The translations under genes were made by a program, and so were the position numbers. DNA of 64,000 nt from Deferribacter autotrophicus. Its GTDB lineage: Bacteria > Chrysiogenota > Deferribacteres > Deferribacterales > Deferribacteraceae. Each line of letters opens with the position of its first letter. Position 1 is the stretch's first letter. The stretch is taken from positions 1-64,000 of the forward strand of contig NZ_VFJB01000005.1 of the NCBI RefSeq assembly GCF_008362905.1, given 5' to 3'. This document shows positions 15,615 to 15,953 of this stretch, piece by piece. The notes under the pieces are model-generated. The model had not been told where the DNA came from. It was given only the letters and a program-made list of their open reading frames with translations, and made no database searches.

Positions 15615-15953
15615 AGCCCGGTAATTAGTTGCCACTGAAAAAGTGGCAACTAATTTATAATAAATTATTTATCACTATTTTTTTAAAGAAAATCCTTCGG
15701 ACTTAAAGGGGGTAAACCCCCTTTAAATTCCTGAAAAGAGGATAAAAATAGAGATTATTATTTTGGTAAATTAGTTTTCATACGAAAACTAATTTTGGGG
15801 ATGAAATAAAATCAAATTACCATATTTGCAGTTTTAGATGTGAAGTATTGTTATTTAACTTTTTGATGGAAAATTATTTTAAAAACAGAAATTCATTACT
15901 AATACTTAGTTCTCACTTTTTCAGTGAGAACTAAGTATCCGGGCTTTTTTTTT
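15615..15953 (+). terminator. kor terminator split by an insertion
   Basis: AGCCCGG (15615-15621) is complementary to CCGGGCT (15939-15945), which is followed by a run of nine T (15945-15953). Without the bases between, this would be an ordinary terminator with a very short loop. The two arms are now more than 300 bp apart, so termination may be weakened. Confidence 0.6.
15624..15935. mobile_element. MITE-like 312-bp element with palindromic, compensated ends
   Basis: The element has no open frame. Its left end (15624-15654) and right end (15905-15935, read in reverse) share the pattern TTAGTT..CAC-tgaaaaa-GTG..AACTAA. Each is a perfect hairpin. Where the two ends differ (three base pairs) both sides of the stem have changed together. 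A third hairpin with the same TTAGTT foot lies at 15768-15795 and a G/C-run hairpin at 15703-15726. TA lies directly outside both ends (15622-15623, 15936-15937), consistent with a target duplication. It fills the otherwise gene-free stretch 15610-15965. A structured RNA is the alternative. Confidence 0.6.

What the first reader, a model, noticed from the sequence alone, without database searches (positions are those of the whole stretch)
15624..15935. MITE-like element whose ends are hairpins with compensatory changes
Both ends fold as 12-bp stems around a 7-nt loop and are inverted copies of each other. The three stem positions where they differ are changed on both sides, so base pairing, not sequence, has been kept. 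The loops (tgaaaaa and tttttca) are complementary and could kiss. A third hairpin with the same foot lies inside. Flanking TA pairs suggest insertion. This does not match an element I know.
Basis: partly seen in the sequence, partly recalled or inferred. Interest (0 to 1): 0.7.

Follow-up and report, generated by a model that had tools for sequence, protein, structure and literature searches.

The report
Hairpin-ended mobile repeat splitting a terminator
This is one of several dozen scattered copies of a small gene-less mobile DNA repeat, apparently private to this deep-sea bacterium, whose two ends fold into near-invariant hairpins and which here has jumped into the loop of a transcription terminator; it is a new family of a known general kind of bacterial repeat.

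Summary
Window 15624-15935 is a roughly 310-bp non-coding element with inverted hairpin ends, bounded by TA. The host genome is Deferribacter autotrophicus-like. It carries 73 such hairpins in about 45 mostly intergenic places. None was found in 50 other genomes of the phylum, one of them a congener. At this site the element splits an intrinsic terminator (AGCCCGG-TA-[element]-TA-T-CCGGGCTTTTTTTTT). The congener and other relatives have an unbroken terminator after the same gene, so the site was empty. This refutes a conserved cis-acting RNA and supports a mobile repeat. Left and right hairpins differ at two stem pairs in every copy, a fixed mark of left versus right end, not local compensation. 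The third difference, in the hairpin foot, does covary between copies (41 of 54 paired; at most 32 in 5000 shuffles). Stems stay within about 0.5% of consensus while the interior diverges by about 18%. No transposase lies between paired ends except nested IS110 elements, and no Y1 (RAYT-type) or IS630-type transposase was found; the enzyme that moves it is unknown. An IS110-family element has inserted at one exact bond of these hairpins in 8 of its 9 copies. Verdict: a new hairpin-ended MITE/REPIN-like family.

The parts
15615..15621 (+). AGCCCGG, left arm of the interrupted kor terminator
   Evidence: perfect inverted repeat of 15939-15945; relatives have an unbroken terminator after the same gene
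15622..15623 (.). TA at the left boundary
   Evidence: TA at this place (1-nt play) in 52 of 54 hairpin ends not cut by IS110
15624..15935 (+). the mobile element (this copy), no ORF of its own
15623..15655 (+). left (L) terminal hairpin, stem 14 bp, loop GAAAA
15703..15726 (+). internal G-rich hairpin TTAAAGGGGG-TAAA-CCCCCTTTAA, a module also found in other copies and alone
   Evidence: sequence; motif scan of other loci
15768..15795 (+). internal hairpin with the same AATTAGTT foot (M module)
15902..15938 (+). right (R) terminal hairpin, stem 16 bp, loop TTTTC, inverted relative to L
15936..15937 (.). TA at the right boundary
15939..15953 (+). CCGGGCT + T run, right arm and tail of the interrupted terminator

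Best explanation
A non-autonomous mobile DNA element (MITE/REPIN-like) whose terminal hairpins are the recognition ends. It inserts at TA, probably with duplication of TA, mostly between genes; here it landed in the loop of the intrinsic terminator of the kor (2-oxoacid:ferredoxin oxidoreductase) genes. An unlinked or now lost enzyme moved it by reading the hairpin ends. Shown: dispersed multi-copy family, hairpin ends of two fixed types, TA boundaries, interrupted terminator, empty site in relatives, covarying foot pairs. Inferred: TA duplication, the trans-acting enzyme, and recognition as a folded strand rather than as double-stranded DNA. On the enzyme: a TA-duplicating DDE transposase (IS630/IS5-like) fits the TA ends best; a single-strand (HUH-like) enzyme fits the conserved pairing best; neither was found.
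For: 200 matches to the element in its own genome; 73 hairpins within 3 mismatches; none in 50 other Deferribacterota genomes. Orthologous kor-sdhE gap of the congener holds a plain terminator and no element, and other relatives have an unbroken terminator after the same gene. TA at 52 of 54 ends, against roughly 10% at positions further out. L stems 0.5% off consensus against 17.5% in the adjoining interior; R interior 18.8%, R stems 3 mismatches in 23 hairpins. Foot pairing 41 of 54 against a shuffled mean of 24.5, maximum 32. In the loci read, 59 of 60 hairpins lie outside predicted ORFs.
Against: No transposase found between a pair of ends, only nested IS110 elements. No Y1 and no DDE_3 transposase in the genome. 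A 2-bp TA duplication cannot be told from TA being part of the element in an AT-rich genome, and no longer duplication was detected. No close strain was available to show an exact empty site.
Confidence: 0.82

Rival explanations
1. REPIN/BIME proper: paired inverted REP hairpins mobilised by a RAYT (Y1 tyrosine transposase) acting on single-stranded DNA.
For: Two inverted hairpins with a variable spacer, invariant ends, extragenic location, covarying stem pairs and IS110 targeting all match descriptions of REPs/REPINs (PMC3116915; PMC1525189).
Against: No Y1_Tnp match in the genome, although the same search rings in E. coli and other controls. The foot is TA-NN-TAGTT, without a GTAG-type tag. 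Elements of 100 to over 450 bp with further hairpin modules inside.
Confidence: 0.1
2. A cis-acting or trans-acting RNA of the kor-sdhE region.
For: Strong RNA fold.
Against: Absent at the same site in relatives, dozens of copies elsewhere, no Rfam match over a gathering score.
Confidence: 0.02
3. Hairpins kept for a host role after insertion (REP-like: mRNA 3' end protection, attenuation or protein binding), with mobility only in the past.
For: Stems are about 0.5% off consensus although the nearest relative of a typical L-end copy is about 14% away in the interior; copies lie between genes, often convergent ones.
Against: Selection for intact ends at each transposition, with diverging master copies, also predicts invariant ends; mosaic recombination of interiors inflates their divergence.
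Confidence: 0.2
4. Foot covariation is produced by quasi-palindrome correction (template switching at replication) rather than by selection for pairing. This concerns one feature and is compatible with the main explanation.
For: Pairs at the foot differ between copies on both arms (AT, AA, CT, AG feet), while several copies keep a mismatched outer arm with a standard inner arm.
Against: Covariation also follows from inheritance within subfamilies (the CT-foot R ends: W, L052, L055, L064), which cannot be separated here.
Confidence: 0.3

Closest known systems
REPIN / REP / BIME (RAYT-associated)
   Same: two inverted hairpins with conserved ends and variable spacer, extragenic, mosaic arrays, compensatory changes, target of IS110-family elements
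   Different: no RAYT/Y1 gene in the genome, no GTAG-type foot tag, TA boundaries, larger and modular interior, left and right hairpins of two fixed types
TA-flanked bacterial MITEs (Correia/NEMIS, RUP; recalled, not compared here by sequence)
   Same: short, non-coding, inverted ends, TA at both boundaries, many intergenic copies
   Different: each end is itself a complete palindromic hairpin; no IS630-type (DDE_3) transposase in the genome
IS200/IS605 ends
   Same: hairpins near the ends
   Different: ends are inverted copies of each other here, and no Y1 transposase is present

Membership tests
MITE (generic) | short, non-coding, multi-copy, dispersed | tested here: met
MITE (generic) | terminal inverted repeats | tested here: met
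   inverted L/R ends in the 15 paired copies
MITE (generic) | target site duplication | tested here: inconclusive
   TA at both ends of nearly all copies; nothing longer; duplication itself not provable without an exact empty site
MITE (generic) | autonomous relative with the same ends | tested here: inconclusive
   no parent among hairpin pairs read; DDE_3, DDE_Tnp_1 and DDE_Tnp_1_2 searches gave no element with these ends; not all transposase families were searched
REPIN | RAYT (Y1) gene in the genome | tested here: not met
   controls positive
REPIN | inverted pair of conserved hairpins | tested here: met
REPIN | GTAG/CGTC-type tag at the hairpin foot | tested here: not met
   foot is TA-NN-TAGTT
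Rfam RNA families | score over the curated gathering cut-off | tested here: not met
IS91 (Y2) | Y2 transposase in the genome | tested here: inconclusive
   no match, but the control genomes did not ring either

The most novel reading that the evidence does not exclude
A mobile repeat whose ends are recognised as folded hairpins by an enzyme that is neither a Y1 (RAYT/TnpA) nor an IS630-type transposase, with the hairpin foot re-matched to itself at or after insertion and TA as the target: a TA-specific, structure-reading transposition route not yet described.
Probability: 0.15. Interest if true: 0.75.

Novelty: new variant of a known kind. Interest (0 to 1): 0.45.

Why it matters
It adds a hairpin-ended repeat family in a deep-branching thermophile, apparently without the transposases expected for REPINs or TA-type MITEs, so the enzyme that moves it is an open, testable question. 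It also shows a terminator split by a mobile element, and a second element (IS110-family) that has specialised on the hairpins of the first.

Tried and rejected
Conserved RNA (rejected). Autonomous parent: the 1.65-kb L...R copy in L154 carries only a nested repeat with an IS110-type gene inside it. IS4/IS5-like transposase loci (L174-L176) lack these ends. Longer target duplications: none clearly over shuffles. Split terminators at other copies: of 15 paired copies only the window copy shows one, so terminator-loop targeting is not a rule of the family. Phages, plasmids and viral contigs: no relatives (one 36-nt chance-level phage hit). The R-end hairpin figure (22 mismatches) comes from one misaligned row, L050; R-stem conservation was taken instead. 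Literature searches found no description of such repeats in Deferribacter.

Full report
Host and setting. The window lies in a 2,535,300-base genome. Its contig C1 is 319,692 bases long, equal to the N50 published for the Deferribacter autotrophicus SL50 draft (PMC6896113), so the organism is most likely that species.

Anatomy. From left to right: AGCCCGG, TA, left hairpin (stem 14 bp, loop GAAAA), a G-rich hairpin, an internal hairpin with the same AATTAGTT foot, right hairpin (stem 16 bp, loop TTTTC), TA, T, CCGGGCT and a run of T. The RNA and DNA folds are 11.6 and 10.8 standard deviations better than shuffles. Taking the element out with one TA leaves AGCCCGG-TAT-CCGGGCTTTTTTTTT, an ordinary intrinsic terminator.

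Empty site. In the only congener held (G001) the same gene pair is separated by about 50 bases with the uninterrupted terminator GATAGGGAG-TTTT-CTCCCTATC. Calditerrivibrio and other Deferribacterota have an unbroken terminator directly after the kor gene. The element is therefore an insertion into the terminator of this lineage. At the other 14 paired copies the two flanks do not pair better than shuffled flanks, so landing in a terminator loop is not the family's rule.

Copies. BLAST finds 200 matching stretches in the genome; a degenerate hairpin pattern finds 73 hairpins within 3 mismatches and none in the 50 other genomes of the phylum at up to 2 mismatches. There are no relatives in plasmids or viral contigs and only a 36-nt chance-level phage hit. 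I read about 44 places; 59 of 60 hairpins lie outside predicted ORFs. The L hairpin (GTTGCCACT) and R hairpin (GTTCTCACT) face each other inversely in 15 paired copies. Interiors are mosaic: some lack the G and M modules, some repeat them, and others carry nested elements. Aligned interiors are 65-84% identical to the window copy.

What is kept. L stems differ from consensus at 2 of 374 positions and R stems at 3 positions in 23 hairpins, while the adjoining interiors differ at 17.5% (L) and 18.8% (R) of positions and the median nearest-neighbour interior distance is 14% (L) and 11% (R). The scan required no more than 5 substitutions, which would still have admitted far more divergent stems. 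TA stands 2-3 nt outside the TAGTT core in 52 of 54 ends.

Compensation. The G-C/C-G versus C-G/T-A difference between L and R hairpins is the same in all 60 hairpins, with no mixed form, so it marks the end type. The foot pairs vary between copies: AT, AA, CT and AG feet occur with matching inner arms; 41 of 54 feet pair, against a shuffled mean of 24.5 and a maximum of 32 in 5000 shuffles. Part of this is shared descent (the CT feet of the R ends of W, L052, L055 and L064), and several L copies have an outer arm that does not pair with a standard inner arm. Pairing is favoured, but selection and template-switch repair cannot be told apart here.

Mechanism. The element has no gene. Y1 and DDE_3 transposases are absent from the genome (controls positive). 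Three DDE_Tnp_1 genes exist but without such ends. The only transposases found between L and R ends are of nested IS110-type elements. The best reading is mobilisation in trans by an unlinked or lost enzyme that recognises the hairpin ends and targets TA. I put a TA-duplicating DDE enzyme at about 0.45 and a single-strand enzyme at about 0.3; these are judgements, not computed values.

An element on the element. A 1415-bp IS110-family element with 9 near-identical copies has entered 8 times at the bond AGTG(AG or GC)AACT^AATTA or its foot variant, 6 times in R and twice in L; the ninth site reads GTGCAACT. The family name rests on my reading of the translated gene, not on a profile search. Its leader folds into a stem-loop (GGGACAGA...TCTGTCCC) whose left strand contains CAGTGGGAAT, which matches the target CAGTGAGAAC except for two wobble-compatible letters (score reached by 0.05% of shuffled targets; leader fold z -3.2). 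The predicted fold pairs part of that strand, so it is only a candidate for the target-binding loop of a bridge RNA (PMC11208160); it parallels IS110 elements that target REPs (PMC1525189). It is a prediction, not tested.

Noticed in passing
L165-L173 (G000 C1, C3, C4, C9): IS110-family element, 1415 bp, 9 copies, 8 of them at one exact bond of the L/R hairpin foot; the leader carries a candidate bridge-RNA target loop matching the hairpin.
   Followed up: partly
L045 and L048 (C3, near 324.6 kb and 349 kb): A ~110-bp element with ends ACACGTGTAA...TTACACGTGT inserted in the loop of L hairpins, possibly with a 3-bp TCA duplication.
   Followed up: no
L050, L052, L054, L061, L154: A separate repeat with ends like GGATGTTGCACAATA...TATTGTGCAACATCC and a CATTGCGAG...GCAATCTC core is nested inside copies of the family; the one in L154 holds a second IS110-type gene (336 aa).
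   Followed up: partly
L033, L034, L037, L048, L053, L062, L066, L068: A sister repeat type built of G-rich and M hairpins, in part flanked by one L hairpin and a degenerate TAGTTCCTGCTGAAAAAGTG end.
   Followed up: partly
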